From contig JAFAJB010000191.1 of assembly GCA_019236395.1 (NCBI GenBank), positions 1 through 33,131 of the forward strand: 33,131 bases of DNA, given 5' to 3'. Position 1 is the stretch's first letter; each line of letters begins with the position of its first letter. The notes under the pieces were generated by a model, which was not told where the DNA came from, did not search any database, and was given only the letters and a program-made list of their open reading frames with translations. Source of the DNA: Cupriavidus sp. (GTDB taxonomy: Bacteria; Pseudomonadota; Gammaproteobacteria; Burkholderiales; Burkholderiaceae). Positions 11,866-24,815 of the stretch are shown in pieces. Made by a program: the position numbers and the translations under genes.

Positions 11866-12861
11866 TTATTCCTGCGGCATGCCCTGGTCCGCCACGACCC
11901 GCAGGTTGCGCGGCGCCGCTACCGGAGGCAGGCCGACAAACTCGCCCACCACCTGGCGGAACAGGTTGCGCGCCCAGACCAGCATCGGATGCGTGTTGCG
12001 GCTGCGGTGCCAGAACATGTTCAGGCCCAGCATAGTATTCAGCTCCGCCGGCAACGGGAACGCCTTCAGACCATAGGTTTCGCAGGCCATGTCCTTGGTC
12101 AGCGCATTGACCGTGAAGATCATGTCAGTCTGCGAAGCCAGTTCCGCCTGGGCCCGCCACGAATGAACGGTCAGTGTGGCGTTGCGCTTGAGGCCGCGCT
12201 GCTGCAGCGCGTAGTCGAGCGGGATCAACGCCGGAGCAGGACGGCCAGCGCCACCCGAATGCGCCATGAAGATGTGACTGCAGTCGAGATACTGCTCCAG
12301 CGTGCAGTCGTTCTTCAGCAGAGGGTGGTTCTTTCGCGCGCAAACCCACAGGTTCAGCGAGGTCACTATCTCCTCGACGATCTCTGGATGGCGGGTCGGG
12401 AATGGCGAAAAAGCCAGGTCGAGCTCATTGGCGCGCATCGACGCCACGTCGGACTCCCACGAGTGCGACTCGACCAGGCGGATATGCAGGTCCGGTGCCA
12501 GTTGCTTGATGCGCAGAACAAAACGGTTGAATACCGTATCCCCGAGTTCCGCGGCAAAGCCGATACTTAGCGTACCAGTGGCGACGGCCGGATCGAAGGT
12601 GCCCGCATCGCCCTCGTTGATTGACGACCACAGGTCGAGCATGTCACGAATCTTGGGCCCCAACTCCAGCGCGCGCGGCGTAGGCGTGAGACCATGGGGC
12701 ACGCGAATGAAGAGTGGATCGTCGAAGATTTCACGCAAGCGACCGAGCGAGTGCGAAACCGCCGGCGCCGTCATGTGCATCTTTTCCGCCACATAGGTGG
12801 CGTTTCGCTTGCTAAGCAACTCGGTAAAGATCACGAGCAGCTTGGTATCCACATTCACCAT
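11866..12861 (-). CDS. LysR-family transcriptional regulator
   Basis: The 331-residue protein has an N-terminal winged helix-turn-helix (about 4-63: LLVIFTELLSKRNATYVAEK, then MTAPAVSHSLGRLREIFDDPLF). A periplasmic-binding-like effector domain follows (about 90-300), with TLSIGFAAELGD at its first strand. LysR proteins bind T-N11-A sites and usually control a divergent neighbour. Here that is the flavin reductase-like gene across a 292-base gap, so control of it is a reasonable inference. The effector cannot be told from sequence. The C-terminal about 30 residues (PPVAAPRNLRVVADQGMPQE) are a non-conserved tail. The ATG at 12861 lacks a strong ribosome-binding site, but the helix-turn-helix begins immediately. 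Confidence 0.88.
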   Translation of the reverse strand: MVNVDTKLLVIFTELLSKRNATYVAEKMHMTAPAVSHSLGRLREIFDDPLFIRVPHGLTPTPRALELGPKIRDMLDLWSSINEGDAGTFDPAVATGTLSIGFAAELGDTVFNRFVLRIKQLAPDLHIRLVESHSWESDVASMRANELDLAFSPFPTRHPEIVEEIVTSLNLWVCARKNHPLLKNDCTLEQYLDCSHIFMAHSGGAGRPAPALIPLDYALQQRGLKRNATLTVHSWRAQAELASQTDMIFTVNALTKDMACETYGLKAFPLPAELNTMLGLNMFWHRSRNTHPMLVWARNLFRQVVGEFVGLPPVAAPRNLRVVADQGMPQE

Positions 12862-19887: not shown

Positions 19888-20286
19888 TCAGGCGAACGAA
19901 TAGAACACGCGGAACTGCACCTTGCGCTCGCTCCAGAATTCGGCCGCGTCGCGGAACACGTCCAGCAGCACCTCGCGCGCTTCCTTGTCGAACTTCTGCG
20001 CGATCGGCAGACCCTCCAGCACGATCACGAAGCCCGGCTGCGGACCGGCCTTGTGGATCATGTCGGTCAGGCAATCGGACAGGGCATCGAAATTCTTGCC
20101 GAAATGCTTCGGGAACGTGAATTCCGTGGCGATGCGCTCGAGAATCTCCGCCTTGCTGGCGCAATCGGCACAGTTGGCATAGAGGAAGTGCTGATTCATC
20201 GCGGCGGCTGCCTGGGCCAGCTCGGGCACGCGGAAGGCGCGGATCGACTGGACGATGTTGGGACGCACCGTCTTGAACAGATTCAT
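19888..20286 (-). CDS. Barstar-family ribonuclease inhibitor
   Basis: Barstar binds and blocks barnase-type RNases in the cytosol before they are exported. From the ATG at 20286 the protein has 132 residues; the barstar fold lies at about 25-125, with FLYANCADCASKAEILERIA, the signature FPKHFGKNFDALSDCLTDM and FVIVLEGLP. The start is chosen because GAGGA lies 6-7 bases before this ATG and homologous proteins, as I recall them, begin near TVRPNIVQSIRAF. The same frame is open back to an ATG at 20496 that overlaps the RNase stop (ATGA). A 202-residue form is therefore possible. The gene lies directly downstream of the RNase it probably inhibits. Confidence 0.85.
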   Translation of the reverse strand: MNLFKTVRPNIVQSIRAFRVPELAQAAAAMNQHFLYANCADCASKAEILERIATEFTFPKHFGKNFDALSDCLTDMIHKAGPQPGFVIVLEGLPIAQKFDKEAREVLLDVFRDAAEFWSERKVQFRVFYSFA

Positions 20287-20492
20287 GGCTTCCTCGTTGG
20301 TGCCGTGGTCAGCGCAGGCCACCATGGCGGGCGCGCATGCTGGGGGAAGTCGGTGCGTCAGATCCTGGCGCGGCATCATCAACACATTGTCGTAAAGGTT
20401 CTGGGCCTGATGGTGAGCCCTTTGCCAGCCATCTCCGGCGCCGCGCTCCTCGCGGGCGGCAAGGGCGTCGCCCAATCCGAAAATGTCACTCA

Positions 20493-21008
20493 TCATTTGG
20501 TTATCCGTTTGAAACTGTTGTAGTGGTCTTCCGTGTAATAGCAGTCGTTGGCGGCGCGTTGATCACCACCGCAAACGATCCGCTTGGCTCCCCGGTTCCG
20601 GCTATTGCTGTTCTTGACGGTGTACTCGCGGTAATACCCGCGAGCCTGCTGCGGCAGGCTGTGTTCGTAGTTGCCGAAACGCGAACCGTCTTTTTCATAT
20701 GGGAACGGCCCGCCGGTCTCGATGCGCTCCAGCGTCTGCCGTGCCTCGTTGGGCAACTGCTGTGCGGCGATGGTTCCCACCACCCCCTGCACGTCATCGG
20801 GCGACTGTCTTGCCATGACGCCTTGCGGCATCACGGCCAGCGCCATCGAAAGCGCCGCGCCCGCCAACACGTGGCCCAGGCTTCGCGCCAGGCCCAGGGA
20901 CTGCCAATGTGACTGCCGCTGCGACTGGCTCGAGGAAATCCGGGAACCCACGTTATCGAAAAAAATTGCGAAAAGTTGTTGGCGGCTCACTCCGGCCCTG
21001 ACGATCAC
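20493..21008 (-). CDS. Secreted barnase-type (N1/T1 family) ribonuclease
   Basis: The 171-residue protein carries the microbial ribonuclease core in about residues 80-170. LPNEARQTLERIETGGPFPY leads in, E128 (REYTV), R143 (GAKRIVCGG) and H162 (TEDHYNSF) match the general base, phosphate-binding arginine and general acid of barnase (E73, R87, H102), and C146/C156 could form a disulfide. A hydrophobic stretch SLGHVLAGAALSMALAVMPQGVMA (43-66) looks like a signal peptide with cleavage after about A66. The N-terminal start is uncertain: the annotated codon is GTG, GAGG is too close, and the n-region before the hydrophobic part would be unusually long (about 42 residues). Barstar follows on the same strand. 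Confidence 0.85.
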   Translation of the reverse strand: MIVRAGVSRQQLFAIFFDNVGSRISSSQSQRQSHWQSLGLARSLGHVLAGAALSMALAVMPQGVMARQSPDDVQGVVGTIAAQQLPNEARQTLERIETGGPFPYEKDGSRFGNYEHSLPQQARGYYREYTVKNSNSRNRGAKRIVCGGDQRAANDCYYTEDHYNSFKRITK

Positions 21009-21254: not shown

Positions 21255-23576
21255 TCACTTGGCTGCGGCGTCAACCACTACCAGTGCGGTCATGTTGACG
21301 ATACGGCGCACCGTGGCCGACGGCGTCAGGATGTGCACCGGCGCCTTCACACCCAGCAGGATCGGGCCGATTGCCACGTTGTTGCCGGCCGCCACCTTGA
21401 GCAGGTTGTACGAGATGTTGGCCGCGTCGATGTTCGGGCAAACCAGCAGGTTCGCCTCGCCCTTGAGCGTGCTGTCCGGCACCAGCGAGTCACGCAGCTT
21501 TTCGTCGAGCGCGCTGTCGCCGTGCATTTCGCCATCCACCTCGAGTTCCGGCGCGCGGTCACGCAGGATCGCCAGCGTATCGCGCATCTTGCGTGCCGAC
21601 GGCGCTTCCGACGTACCGAAGTTCGAGTGCGACAGCAGACCCACCTTCGGCTCGATACCAAAGCGCTTGAGCTCTTCCGCAGCCATGATCGTGATTTCGG
21701 CCAACTCCTCGGCGGTCGGGTCGACGTTGACGTGCGTGTCCACCAGGAAGATCTGGCGGCCCGGCAGTACCAGGCCGTTCATGGCCGCGTACACGCAGTT
21801 GGTGCCGCCGATTACCTGATCGATATAGCGCAGGTGAGCCGCGGTGGTGCTGACCGTGCCGCAGATCATGCCGTCGGCTTCGCCCTTCTTGACCAGCATC
21901 GAGCCGATCAGTGTGGTACGGCGGCGCATTTCCAGCTTGGCGTACTGCGGCGTGATGCCTTGCCGCGACATCATGCGGTAATACGTGTCCGAATACTCGC
22001 GGAAGCGCTCGTCATGCTCGGGGTTCACCACCGTGAAGTCCTCGCCCATGCGCAGGCGCAGGCCGAAACGTTCGATGCGGTGGGCCAGCACGGCCGGACG
22101 GCCGATCAGGATCGGGTTGGCCAGCTTTTCGTCGACGATCACCTGCACCGCACGCAGCACGCGCTCTTCCTCGCCCTCGGCAAAGACGATGCGCTTCTTG
22201 TCCTTCTGCACCTTGCGAGCAGCCGCGTAGATCGGCTTCATCAGCGTGCCCGAATGGTAGACGAACTGCTGCAGTTGCAGACGATAGGCGTCCATGTCCG
22301 CGATCGGGCGCGAAGCCACGCCCGACTTGGCCGCGGCCTCGGCCACGGCCGGCGCGATCTTGACGATCAGGCGCGGGTCGAACGGCTTCGGAATCAGGTA
22401 CTCGGGGCCGAACGACAGGTCCTGGATACCGTAGGCCGAGGCGACGATATCGCTCTGCTCCTGGCGCGCCAGCTCCGCCACCGCGTTTGCGGCGGCGATT
22501 TCCATTTCACGCGTGATCGTGGTGGCGCCACAATCGAGCGCGCCACGGAAGATGAACGGGAAGCAGAGAACGTTGTTGACCTGGTTCGGATAGTCAGTGC
22601 GGCCCGTGGCGATCACGGCGTCCGGACGCACTTCCTTGACCAGTTCCGGCATGATTTCCGGATTCGGGTTGGCCAGCGCCAGCACCAGCGGGCGGTCAGC
22701 CATCTTCTGCACCATCTCCGGCTTGAGCACGCCGGCAGCGGACAGGCCCAGGAAGATGTCGGCGCCTTCGATGACCTCGGCCAGCTTTCGCTTGTCGGTC
22801 TTCTGCGAGAAGCGCGCCTTTTCCGGGTCCATCAGCTCGGTACGGCCCTCATAGACCACGCCGGCCAAATCGGTCACCCAGATGTTCTCGATCGGCAGGC
22901 CCAGGTCGACGAGCAGGTCCAGGCAGGCCAGCGCGGCAGCGCCGGCGCCCGAAGCCACCAGCTTGACCTCGGAAATGTCCTTGCCAACCACCTTGAGGCC
23001 GTTGACCACGGCCGCACCCACCACGATCGCGGTACCGTGCTGGTCATCGTGGAAGACGGGAATCTTCATCCGTTCGCGCAGCGTACGCTCGACGTAGAAG
23101 CATTCCGGCGCCTTGATGTCTTCAAGGTTGATGCCGCCGAACGTCGGCTCGAGCGAGGCGATGATGTCGACGAGCTTTTCCGGGTCCTTCTCGTCGATTT
23201 CGATATCGAACACATCGATACCGGCGAATTTCTTGAACAGGCCGGCCTTGCCTTCCATCACCGGCTTCGACGCGGCGGCGCCGATGTTGCCAAGGCCCAG
23301 CACTGCAGTGCCGTTGGTGATCACGGCCACAAGGTTGCCGCGGGCGGTGTAGCGGAACGAATCAGCGGGATTGGCGACGATCTCCTCGCAAGCGGCGGCC
23401 ACGCCCGGCGAATAGGCCAGGGCCAGGTCGCGCTGGTTCGAGAGCGGCTTGGTCGGGGTGACGGAAATCTTACCGGGGGTCGGAAACTCGTGGTACTCGA
23501 GCGCGGCCTTGCGCAGCGCCTCACGCTGCTGCTGTTTCAGATCGTCTTGGGACGGGGACTGCTGAGGGCTTGTCAT
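21255..23576 (-). CDS. maeB: NADP-dependent malic enzyme, MaeB type with phosphotransacetylase-like C-terminal domain
   Basis: MaeB decarboxylates malate to pyruvate with NADP reduction, linking the TCA cycle to gluconeogenic and biosynthetic needs. The 773-residue protein has the malic domain (about 25-160: Y55 in [26 protein letters not shown]104 in ASKPVMEGK, metal site FHDDQHGT 175-182) and the NAD-binding domain ([16 protein letters not shown], 207-222). The C-terminal half (about 440-773) resembles phosphotransacetylase ([26 protein letters not shown]); in MaeB proteins it is usually regulatory, responding to acetyl-CoA, and not catalytic. [10 protein letters not shown] at 23576 is preferred to the open frame extending to 23642. 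Confidence 0.95.
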
Positions 23577-23684
23577 CTGCGCATCTTCCGATCGGTGGAG
23601 CCGCACTGAATAGCGCTGGCGATGAGTGCGGGCCGGCTCCACGAACCCGCTGTCTCCGCTGTTTTGGCGCTCTGGGAATTGCGC

Positions 23685-23713
23685 ATTTTATATTGTGAAA
23701 TACTATTTCACAA
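23685..23713 (-). promoter_or_regulatory. Predicted maeB promoter
   Basis: On the minus strand TTGTGA (23708-23713) and TAAAAT (23685-23690) are separated by exactly 17 bases. This lies 109 bases before the maeB ATG. The -35 hexamer is part of the large palindrome at 23691-23715, which fills the whole spacer. Confidence 0.5.
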
Positions 23714-23715
23714 TA
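23691..23715. promoter_or_regulatory. 25-bp perfect palindrome, probable operator between maeB and thiL
   Basis: Arms TATTGTGAAATA (23691-23702) and TATTTCACAATA (23704-23715) are exact reverse complements around a single C. The TGTGA and TCACA ends are 9 bases apart, not the 6 of a CRP site, so it is not a CRP/FNR operator. It covers the -35 and spacer of the predicted maeB promoter and lies 33 bases before the possible thiL -10. It is AT-rich in a GC-rich setting and looks like a dimeric repressor site (GntR, IclR or TetR type). The protein is unknown. Confidence 0.7.
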
Positions 23716-23747
23716 AGCGTTTTGCGCGGAGCACCTTTGCGTTTAGG

Positions 23748-23753
23748 TACAAT
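23748..23753 (+). promoter_or_regulatory. Possible -10 element of the thiL operon
   Basis: TACAAT (5 of 6 to consensus) lies on the plus strand; the nearest -35-like TTGCGC (23722-23727) is 20 bases upstream, longer than ideal. A start near 23760 would suit the chosen thiL ATG at 23838. Confidence 0.35.
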
Positions 23754-23837
23754 ATGCCGCATGCCGAAGGGCTTGACCAGCAGGAGTCCTCACCGGGATT
23801 CACGATGCTCGGCCGCCCGGGTTCCCCGCCTGCTTCC

Positions 23838-24815
23838 ATGCCCGATTCTTCCCCAGCGCTTTCCGAATTCGACCTGATCCGACGCTTCTTCACGCGCCCC
23901 GTCCACAAGGCCGCGCTGGGCGTGGGCGATGACTGCGCATTGATCGAAGCCCGCCCCGGCCATCAGCTTGCGATCAGCACCGACATGCTGGTCAGCGGGC
24001 GCCACTTCTTCCCAGATGTGCCGCCTCGCGCACTCGGCCACAAGGCGCTGGCCGTGAACCTGTCCGACCTGGCCGCGATGGGCGCGGAGCCGCGCGCGTT
24101 CACGCTGGCGCTGGCGCTGCCCGAAGCGGACGCCGCCTGGCTGGCCGAATTCGCGGCCGGCATGCTGGCGCTGGCCGACGACTACGGCTGCGAGCTGATC
24201 GGCGGCGACACGACCAAGGGGCCGCTGACACTGTCGATCACGGTCTTCGGCGACGTGCCGCCGCGCCAGGCGCTGCGACGCGACGCCGCCCGGCCCGGCG
24301 AGGACATCTGGGTCTCCGGCACGCTCGGTGATGCGCGGCTGGCCCTGGGCGACTGCCGTGGCGAATGGCTGTTGCCCGAGCCCGATTTCACACTGATCCG
24401 CCCCCGCATGGAAATGCCGACACCGCGCGTGGCGCTGGGCCTGGCACTGCGCGGGGTGGCGCATGCAGCGCTCGATATCTCGGATGGCCTGATCGGCGAC
24501 CTTGGCCACATTCTCGAACGTTCATCGGTCGGCGCGATTGTCGACGTCGACGCGCTGCCGCGCTCGGAAATCCTCGGCGCCCAGCCGCTGGAGTGCCAGC
24601 GGGCCTGCGTGCTGGCCGGCGGCGACGATTACGAACTGTGTTTCACCGCGCCGGTGGGCGCGCGCGAAGCCATCGCCGCAATCGGGCGCCAGCTTGGCTT
24701 GGCCGTAACGCGCGTCGGATCGATCACATCCGAGGCAGGCCTGCGCCTTGTGGATCGTGACGGCAATCCCTATCTGTTCAAGGGCGCGTCGTTCGATCAT
24801 TTCGCCGCGCCATGA
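23838..24815 (+). CDS. thiL: Thiamine-monophosphate kinase
   Basis: ThiL phosphorylates thiamine monophosphate to thiamine diphosphate with ATP, the last step of cofactor synthesis. From the ATG at 23838 the protein has 325 residues, the same as E. coli ThiL. The AIR-synthase-like fold shows SEFDLIRRFFTRP, GVGDDCALI, STDMLVSGRHFF, NLSDLAAMGAEPRAF, GGDTTKGPLTLSITVFG and DISDGLIGDLGHIL, then GGDDYELCFT near the C terminus. Earlier in-frame ATGs at 23754 and 23805 would add poorly conserved residues; 23805 has a weak GGGA site, so it cannot be excluded. Transketolase elsewhere in this window uses the product. Its stop codon lies in a 9-bp inverted repeat. Confidence 0.93.
   Translation: MPDSSPALSEFDLIRRFFTRPVHKAALGVGDDCALIEARPGHQLAISTDMLVSGRHFFPDVPPRALGHKALAVNLSDLAAMGAEPRAFTLALALPEADAAWLAEFAAGMLALADDYGCELIGGDTTKGPLTLSITVFGDVPPRQALRRDAARPGEDIWVSGTLGDARLALGDCRGEWLLPEPDFTLIRPRMEMPTPRVALGLALRGVAHAALDISDGLIGDLGHILERSSVGAIVDVDALPRSEILGAQPLECQRACVLAGGDDYELCFTAPVGAREAIAAIGRQLGLAVTRVGSITSEAGLRLVDRDGNPYLFKGASFDHFAAP

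What the first reader, a model, noticed from the sequence alone, without database searches (positions are those of the whole stretch)
23685..23715. 25-bp perfect palindrome filling the spacer of a predicted maeB promoter
TATTGTGAAATA and its exact reverse complement flank one C. It overlaps a TTGTGA-17-TAAAAT promoter for the malic enzyme and lies upstream of thiL. A perfect 12-bp arm is very unlikely by chance in GC-rich DNA, and the half-site spacing excludes CRP. It points to a repressor controlling the malate/pyruvate node, which I cannot identify.
Basis: partly seen in the sequence, partly recalled or inferred. Interest (0 to 1): 0.62.

Follow-up and report, generated by a model that had tools for sequence, protein, structure and literature searches.

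The report
Conserved operator-like palindrome in maeB promoter
A short mirror-symmetric DNA motif sits inside the predicted start signal of a malic-enzyme gene in nearly all Cupriavidus genomes examined, normally once per genome, so it is probably the landing site of a still unidentified gene-control protein.

Summary
The 25-bp palindrome is real (23691-23715, perfect 12-bp arms, one central base). Alone it is only moderately improbable: 12 of 100 dinucleotide shuffles of the window hold some perfect 12-bp inverted repeat. Conservation makes it convincing. The window is from Cupriavidus. 54 of 60 genomes of the genus have the site; the other 6 were searched for exact matches only. It lies between divergent maeB and thiL in 37 of 37 loci aligned. 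The right arm TTTCAC lies in the spacer of the predicted maeB promoter (TTGTGA-17-TAAAAT), where no promoter element is expected, and never varies. Spacing to the predicted thiL -10 is the same in all 39 matching genomes, from three genera. No second site exceeds the control and no other half-site spacing occurs, so the expected regulon is not found. Rex is absent where searched; CRP and MerR geometry do not fit. Very similar sites flank an Lrp-like gene in another genus, but that protein was not found in Cupriavidus. Best reading: operator of an unidentified dimeric regulator occluding the maeB promoter, perhaps also affecting thiL. Binding, direction of control and transcription starts are untested.

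The parts
23691..23715 (.). 25-bp palindrome, predicted operator; half-site GTGAAA/TTTCAC, half-site centres 11 bp apart
   Evidence: GTGAAA and TTTCAC unchanged in 37 of 37 Cupriavidus loci
23708..23713 (-). predicted maeB -35 hexamer TTGTGA, inside one palindrome arm
   Evidence: also in g48 and G062
23685..23690 (-). predicted maeB -10 hexamer TAAAAT
   Evidence: next to the palindrome in the alignment; TACAAT in G062
23748..23753 (+). predicted thiL -10 hexamer TACAAT, no -35 recognised by eye and none reported by the scan; 32 bp from the palindrome
   Evidence: spacing identical in 37 of 37 Cupriavidus loci, 13 of 13 g48 loci (12 genomes), and in 39 of 39 matching genomes
23716..23747 (.). 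32-bp link between palindrome and thiL -10, conserved within Cupriavidus but different in g48 and G062
   Evidence: mean column identity 0.89 over 28 of its columns; sequences
21255..23576 (-). maeB, malic enzyme with C-terminal phosphotransacetylase domain
   Evidence: Pfam
23838..24815 (+). thiL, thiamine-monophosphate kinase (AIR synthase domains)

Best explanation
The palindrome is an operator for an unidentified dimeric helix-turn-helix regulator. Each subunit would read GTGAAA; the half-site centres are 11 bp apart, about one helical turn, so both subunits would bind one face of the DNA. The site covers the -35 hexamer and the spacer of the predicted maeB promoter, so a bound dimer would block RNA polymerase (repression, centre near -25 of the predicted maeB start). 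The same dimer would lie at about -57 of the predicted thiL start at a fixed distance, so it may also influence thiL. Shown: the sequence, its conservation, its fixed geometry and the lack of further sites. Inferred: that a protein binds, that it represses maeB, and any effect on thiL.
For: 36 of 36 Cupriavidus genomes have it (at most 3 mismatches), one each; both maeB and thiL flank it in 30 of 30 loci fetched there (30 of the 36 genomes). 54 of 60 genus genomes are positive over; the 6 others were not searched with mismatches; pairs 2, 3 and 5-10 of the palindrome are unchanged and symmetric in 37 of 37 loci, while outer flanks average 0.70 and 0.60 identity. The left T of pair 4 is kept (it is a -35 base) while its partner varies in 11 of 37, which separates promoter from operator constraint; the right arm TTTCAC has no known promoter role yet never varies. 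It is also present in 16 of 16 g48 genomes; geometry identical (34 bp between thiL -10 and TTGTGA, although 31-37 was allowed) in 22 of 22 g1, 16 of 16 g48 and 1 of 1 g28 genomes, 0 of 161 others, reversed control 0 of 200; 17 of 20 exact hits in genome contigs are Cupriavidus (16) or an unnamed Burkholderiaceae bacterium (1); 16 of the 17 show both genes, one shows thiL only, its stretch ending 130 bp beyond the site.
Against: No regulator identified and none next to the site. A regulator with one non-adjacent target and no site of the same kind at its own gene is unusual (general knowledge). The palindrome is imperfect in g48 (TTGTGAGATCGCTTTTCACTA) and poor in G062 although the promoter hexamers are kept, so the operator may be loose or absent there. 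Pairs 1, 4, 11 and 12 vary on one side without compensation. [quoted passage not shown] necator under ambient and 10% CO2 (PMC7486775, passages), so repression, if any, is not tight there. Related strains were counted separately.
Confidence: 0.68

Rival explanations
1. No regulator: the block is just two conserved back-to-back promoters, and the palindrome arose because an AT-rich spacer happened to mirror the -35 hexamer.
For: The -35 TTGTGA supplies six bases of one arm; promoter parts are the most widely conserved; pairs 1, 4, 11, 12 vary without compensation; no second site above control; maeB highly expressed (PMC7486775, passages).
Against: TTTCAC in the spacer, where sequence is normally free, is unchanged in 37 of 37 Cupriavidus loci and present in 16 of 16 g48 genomes; 0 of 2000 local shuffles give such a repeat.
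Confidence: 0.17
2. The site serves thiL rather than maeB: the bound protein is an activator at about -57 of thiL, whose promoter has a -10 but no recognised -35.
For: Exactly 32 bp between palindrome and thiL -10 in 37 of 37 Cupriavidus loci and 13 of 13 g48 loci, against 101-221 bp to the maeB start codon.
Against: The distance to the maeB -10 is equally fixed in the alignment; the site overlaps the maeB -35, which an activator of thiL alone would not need.
Confidence: 0.1
3. RNA element: a hairpin in a transcript that crosses the site.
For: The arms could pair; transcription starts are unmapped.
Against: The site lies upstream of both predicted starts; departures from symmetry are one-sided with no compensatory change in 37 loci; no terminator-like site in 23570-23840. 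No RNA folding was run.
Confidence: 0.03

Closest known systems
Rex operator (ROP)
   Same: Half-site TTGTGAA...TTCACAA; ROPs situated close to -35 and -10 elements (PMC8376106, passages)
   Different: ROP is TTGTGAA-N4-TTCACAA; here the gap is 7; no Rex N-terminal domain (PF06971) in the 12 genomes searched
CRP/FNR-family site
   Same: Half-site TGTGA/TCACA
   Different: Gap 9 here, against 6 in the classical CRP site (recalled); the gap is the same in all 39 exact hits
Promoter-overlapping operators of ordinary dimeric repressors (TetR, IclR, GntR, MarR type; recalled)
   Same: AT-rich palindrome over the -35/-10 region, half-sites one turn apart
   Different: No further site in the genomes tested and no adjacent regulator gene
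Tandem palindromes between glmS and an Lrp/AsnC-like gene in genus g34 (gene names by my reading of the translations)
   Same: Closest sequence match found: the 17-mer GTGAAATAATATTTCAC is shared by a g34 site (L133) and 8 of 37 Cupriavidus loci
   Different: g34 has two or three copies 29-30 bp apart, and GTGA...TCAC is complete in only 5 of the 12 main g34 sites (read); the regulator has no match at E 1e-30 in 14 Cupriavidus and g48 genomes

Membership tests
Rex operator | TTGTGAA-N4-TTCACAA | tested here: not met
   Gap is 7; with gaps N0 to N12 allowed between TTGTGAAA and TTTCACAA, every exact hit in 60 Cupriavidus genomes (39 with a hit) has N5
Rex operator | Genome encodes Rex (PF06971) | tested here: not met
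   0 of 12 genomes (9 Cupriavidus, 3 g48); the control rings in 7 of 14 known genomes, 6 over the cut-off
CRP/FNR site | TGTGA-N6-TCACA spacing (recalled) | tested here: not met
   N9 in the sequence
MerR-type operator | Palindrome within a 19-20 bp promoter spacer (recalled) | tested here: not met
   Spacer is 17 bp (counted by eye as 17 in the g48 and G062 sequences)
Site of the g34 glmS-linked Lrp/AsnC-like regulator | Orthologous regulator present | tested here: not met
   0 of 14 Cupriavidus and g48 genomes at E 1e-30; at E 1e-18 only paralogues of 30-37% identity in the 5 such genomes searched, none with glmS within the fetched 1.5 kb where a locus was examined
Lrp/AsnC family in general | Bound by some Lrp/AsnC-family protein | not tested
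   Paralogues exist; site similarity keeps this open
Operator of a dimeric HTH repressor | Conserved two-fold symmetric site over a core promoter | tested here: met
   the promoter is predicted, not mapped
Operator of a dimeric HTH repressor | A protein binds it and lowers transcription | not testable with these tools
   Needs binding and reporter experiments
Regulon-type regulator | Further sites in the genome | tested here: not met
   23 places outside maeB against 24 in the reversed control, 7 genomes, up to 3 mismatches in 16; weaker sites not excluded

The most novel reading that the evidence does not exclude
A dedicated single-target regulator, encoded elsewhere in the genome, uses one dimer on this site to switch between maeB (pyruvate, CO2 and NADPH supply) and thiL (last step to thiamine diphosphate, the cofactor of pyruvate dehydrogenase), coupling pyruvate supply with the cofactor needed to burn it.
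Probability: 0.15. Interest if true: 0.55.

Novelty: new member of a known kind. Interest (0 to 1): 0.36.

Why it matters
Cupriavidus is a chassis for bioplastics and CO2-based production (general knowledge), and malic enzyme feeds pyruvate, CO2 and NADPH. The passages read on maeB in C. necator (PMC8591527, PMC7486775) name no regulator of maeB. A strictly conserved operator-like site gives a clean bait for finding one and a defined place to tune maeB.

Tried and rejected
Lrp/AsnC lead: near-identical palindromes between glmS and an Lrp-like gene in g34. That particular regulator is ruled out because it was not found in Cupriavidus or g48. On rechecking the site resemblance is closer than I first judged: a 17-mer is shared with 8 of 37 Cupriavidus loci. 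A different Lrp/AsnC-family protein as the binder therefore stays open.

Rex lead from the literature: rejected, the gap differs and Rex is absent in 12 genomes.

A weak hit shared by G022 and G033 lies between a LysR-like gene and an iron-sulphur oxidoreductase-like gene (by my reading of the translations) with only one good half-site: taken as unrelated.

Three stray exact hits: two in Lachnospiraceae lie 46 bp beyond the end of similar chemotaxis-receptor-like genes and look like one inherited element; one in Ferruginibacter lies 54 bp upstream of a CRP/FNR-like gene and overlaps the end of the preceding frame. Gene names are my reading of the translations. Not used as evidence.

One search used a wrongly spaced pattern (even the own genome failed to match) and is void; one search is the corrected search, in the family instead of the order. 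A plasmid search to name g48 was uninformative.

Literature: nine searches. Their listings showed no paper whose title or shown abstract describes this palindrome or a maeB regulator in Cupriavidus or Ralstonia; most listed papers were not opened. Passages were read in PMC8591527, PMC7486775, PMC8376106 and PMC9045368; a word search in PMC11332829 found none of its terms. The main text of PMC9045368 (C. metallidurans start sites) has no hit for maeB, thiL or malic; its supplements were out of reach, and RegPrecise itself was not searchable.

Full report
Observation. The palindrome is exactly as described: TATTGTGAAATA-C-TATTTCACAATA at 23691-23715. It covers the -35 hexamer and the whole 17-bp spacer of the only promoter-like match in 23570-23840, TTGTGA-17-TAAAAT on the minus strand, pointing to maeB. 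maeB (21255-23576, minus) has malic-enzyme and phosphotransacetylase domains and thiL (23838-24815, plus) has AIRS domains. Chance: 12 of 100 dinucleotide shuffles of the window contain some perfect 12-bp inverted repeat with spacer 0-10, 2 of 100 one with spacer 1, and 0 of 2000 shuffles of the local 100 bp contain any. The repeat is suggestive, not decisive, by itself.

Where it comes from. The window belongs to an incomplete genome (3.2 Mb, 54% complete) of genus g1. Several g1 contigs have the same lengths as named Cupriavidus contigs found by an exact scan (for example 59872 for C. numazuensis and 142100 for C. gilardii), so g1 is Cupriavidus. The names Ralstonia for g48 and Pandoraea for g34 are my guess from genome size and relatedness; a check of g48 by plasmid similarity was uninformative.

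Conservation. With up to 3 mismatches the 24 fixed bases occur in 36 of 36 Cupriavidus genomes (own included), once each, and in 0 of 24 genomes from other families of the order. A looser core search in 200 genomes of the family matched 108, including 22 of 22 Cupriavidus; many of the other matches are of chance type, as its reversed control shows similar numbers outside Cupriavidus. With exact half-sites and any spacer from 0 to 12, 39 of the 60 genus genomes returned match, each once and each with a 5-bp spacer. Of the 21 without an exact match, 15 carry a variant with one mismatch in the 16-base core and 6 (G518, G519, G520, G524, G525, G527) were not searched with mismatches. So 54 of 60 are positive and 6 undetermined. 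Both maeB and thiL flank the site in 30 of 30 loci fetched (30 of its 36 genomes) and in the 7 further genomes added for the alignment. In the collection of named genomes, 17 of 20 exact hits are Cupriavidus (16) or an unnamed Burkholderiaceae bacterium (1); 16 of the 17 show both genes and one shows thiL only, its stretch ending 130 bp beyond the site.

Fine structure. In 37 Cupriavidus loci from 37 genomes (none dropped by the script) the eight symmetric pairs 2, 3 and 5-10 never vary; pairs 1, 4, 11 and 12 vary, in any one locus on one side only, without compensation. At pair 4 the left base, which belongs to the -35 hexamer, is always T, while its partner is T instead of A in 11 of 37. This separates promoter constraint from operator constraint. 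The right arm, TTTCAC, lies in the spacer, where no promoter element is expected, and never varies. Mean column identity is 0.95 for the 25-mer, 0.99 around the thiL -10, 0.89 for the 28 bp between, and 0.70 and 0.60 in the outer flanks. Closely related strains are counted separately, so these are not independent observations. The centres of GTGAAA and TTTCAC are 11 bp apart, one turn of DNA, as for a classical HTH dimer (general knowledge).

Geometry. The distance between the palindrome and the predicted thiL -10 (TACAAT, 23748-23753) is exactly 32 bp in 37 of 37 Cupriavidus loci and 13 of 13 g48 loci (12 genomes). A pattern joining thiL -10, TTGTGA and TTTC with 31-37 bp allowed matched 39 of 200 family genomes, always with the same spacing: 22 of 22 g1, 16 of 16 g48, 1 of 1 g28, none of the 161 others, reversed control none. 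In g48 the palindrome is imperfect (TTGTGAGATCGCTTTTCACTA, or close variants, 16 of 16) and in G062 (g28) it is poor (TTGTGAAGTTGTGTTTCGCCA), although both keep the hexamers with a 17-bp spacer. In 23 maeB loci of other genera the best match upstream was 10 to 16 of the 24 bases, the 16 in an AT-rich genome, against 22-24 in the Cupriavidus loci, 17 in g48 and 17 in G062 (one of the 23 has under 100 bp of upstream sequence).

Further sites. In 7 Cupriavidus genomes, allowing 3 mismatches in the 16-base core gave 30 places, 7 of them the maeB site; the remaining 23 compare with 24 for the reversed control. A weak hit shared by two genomes lies at a LysR-like gene with a single good half-site. 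No regulator gene flanks the site; among the 25 frames of the window given to Pfam, the regulator-like hits were a LysR protein at 11866-12861 and a response-regulator domain at 227-1276.

Candidate regulators. Rex has the half-site TTGTGAA but with a 4-bp gap (PMC8376106, passages) and was not found in 12 of 12 genomes. CRP needs a 6-bp gap between TGTGA and TCACA (recalled); here it is 9. MerR-type operators need a longer spacer (recalled). A g34 Lrp/AsnC-like gene beside glmS carries two or three palindromes 29-30 bp apart in its upstream region in 6 of 6 genomes; one of them shares the 17-mer GTGAAATAATATTTCAC with 8 of 37 Cupriavidus loci, although GTGA...TCAC is complete in only 5 of 12 of the main g34 sites. 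That protein has no match at E 1e-30 in 14 Cupriavidus and g48 genomes, only 30-37% identical paralogues in the five searched more loosely. So this regulator is not the binder, but a Cupriavidus protein of the same family is the best family-level lead, unproven. The regulator remains unidentified.

Interpretation. The best-supported reading is an operator for one dimeric regulator that blocks the maeB promoter. Because the same site is rigidly placed at about -57 of the predicted thiL start, whose promoter has no recognised -35, an influence on thiL is possible. The chief rival is that only the promoters are constrained; the invariant right arm speaks against it. In C. [quoted passage not shown] neither passage names a regulator.

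Verdict. A real, genus-wide operator-like site without detectable sister sites; ordinary in kind, with an unknown binder and an untested direction of control.

Noticed in passing
19888-21008: Barstar-like (19888-20496) and barnase-like ribonuclease (20493-21008) frames overlap slightly and lie directly downstream of maeB on the same strand.
   Followed up: no
L133-L138, upstream of the Lrp-like gene: In 6 of 6 g34 genomes the region between glmS and an Lrp/AsnC-like gene holds two palindromes of the type TGAAATWWWATTTCA 29 bp apart, and in four of them a third, weaker one 30 bp further up: likely autoregulatory sites of that regulator.
   Followed up: partly
11822, 13772, 19821, 29628: Other places with perfect 12-bp inverted repeats in the window are GC-rich; the first three have flanking A/T runs and look like terminators, the last is a longer GC-rich hairpin about 20 bp after the CorA gene.
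   Followed up: no
L129 7495-7515 and L132 4198-4218: The same 21-mer occurs 46 bp downstream of very similar chemotaxis-receptor-like genes in two Lachnospiraceae genomes (gene names by my reading).
   Followed up: no
L116 743-763: In a Ferruginibacter genome the 21-mer lies 54 bp upstream of a CRP/FNR-like regulator gene (by my reading of the translation).
   Followed up: no
23716-23747: The 32-bp link is conserved within Cupriavidus and within g48 but differs between them, while its length is fixed; it may hold a further, unrecognised element of the thiL promoter.
   Followed up: no
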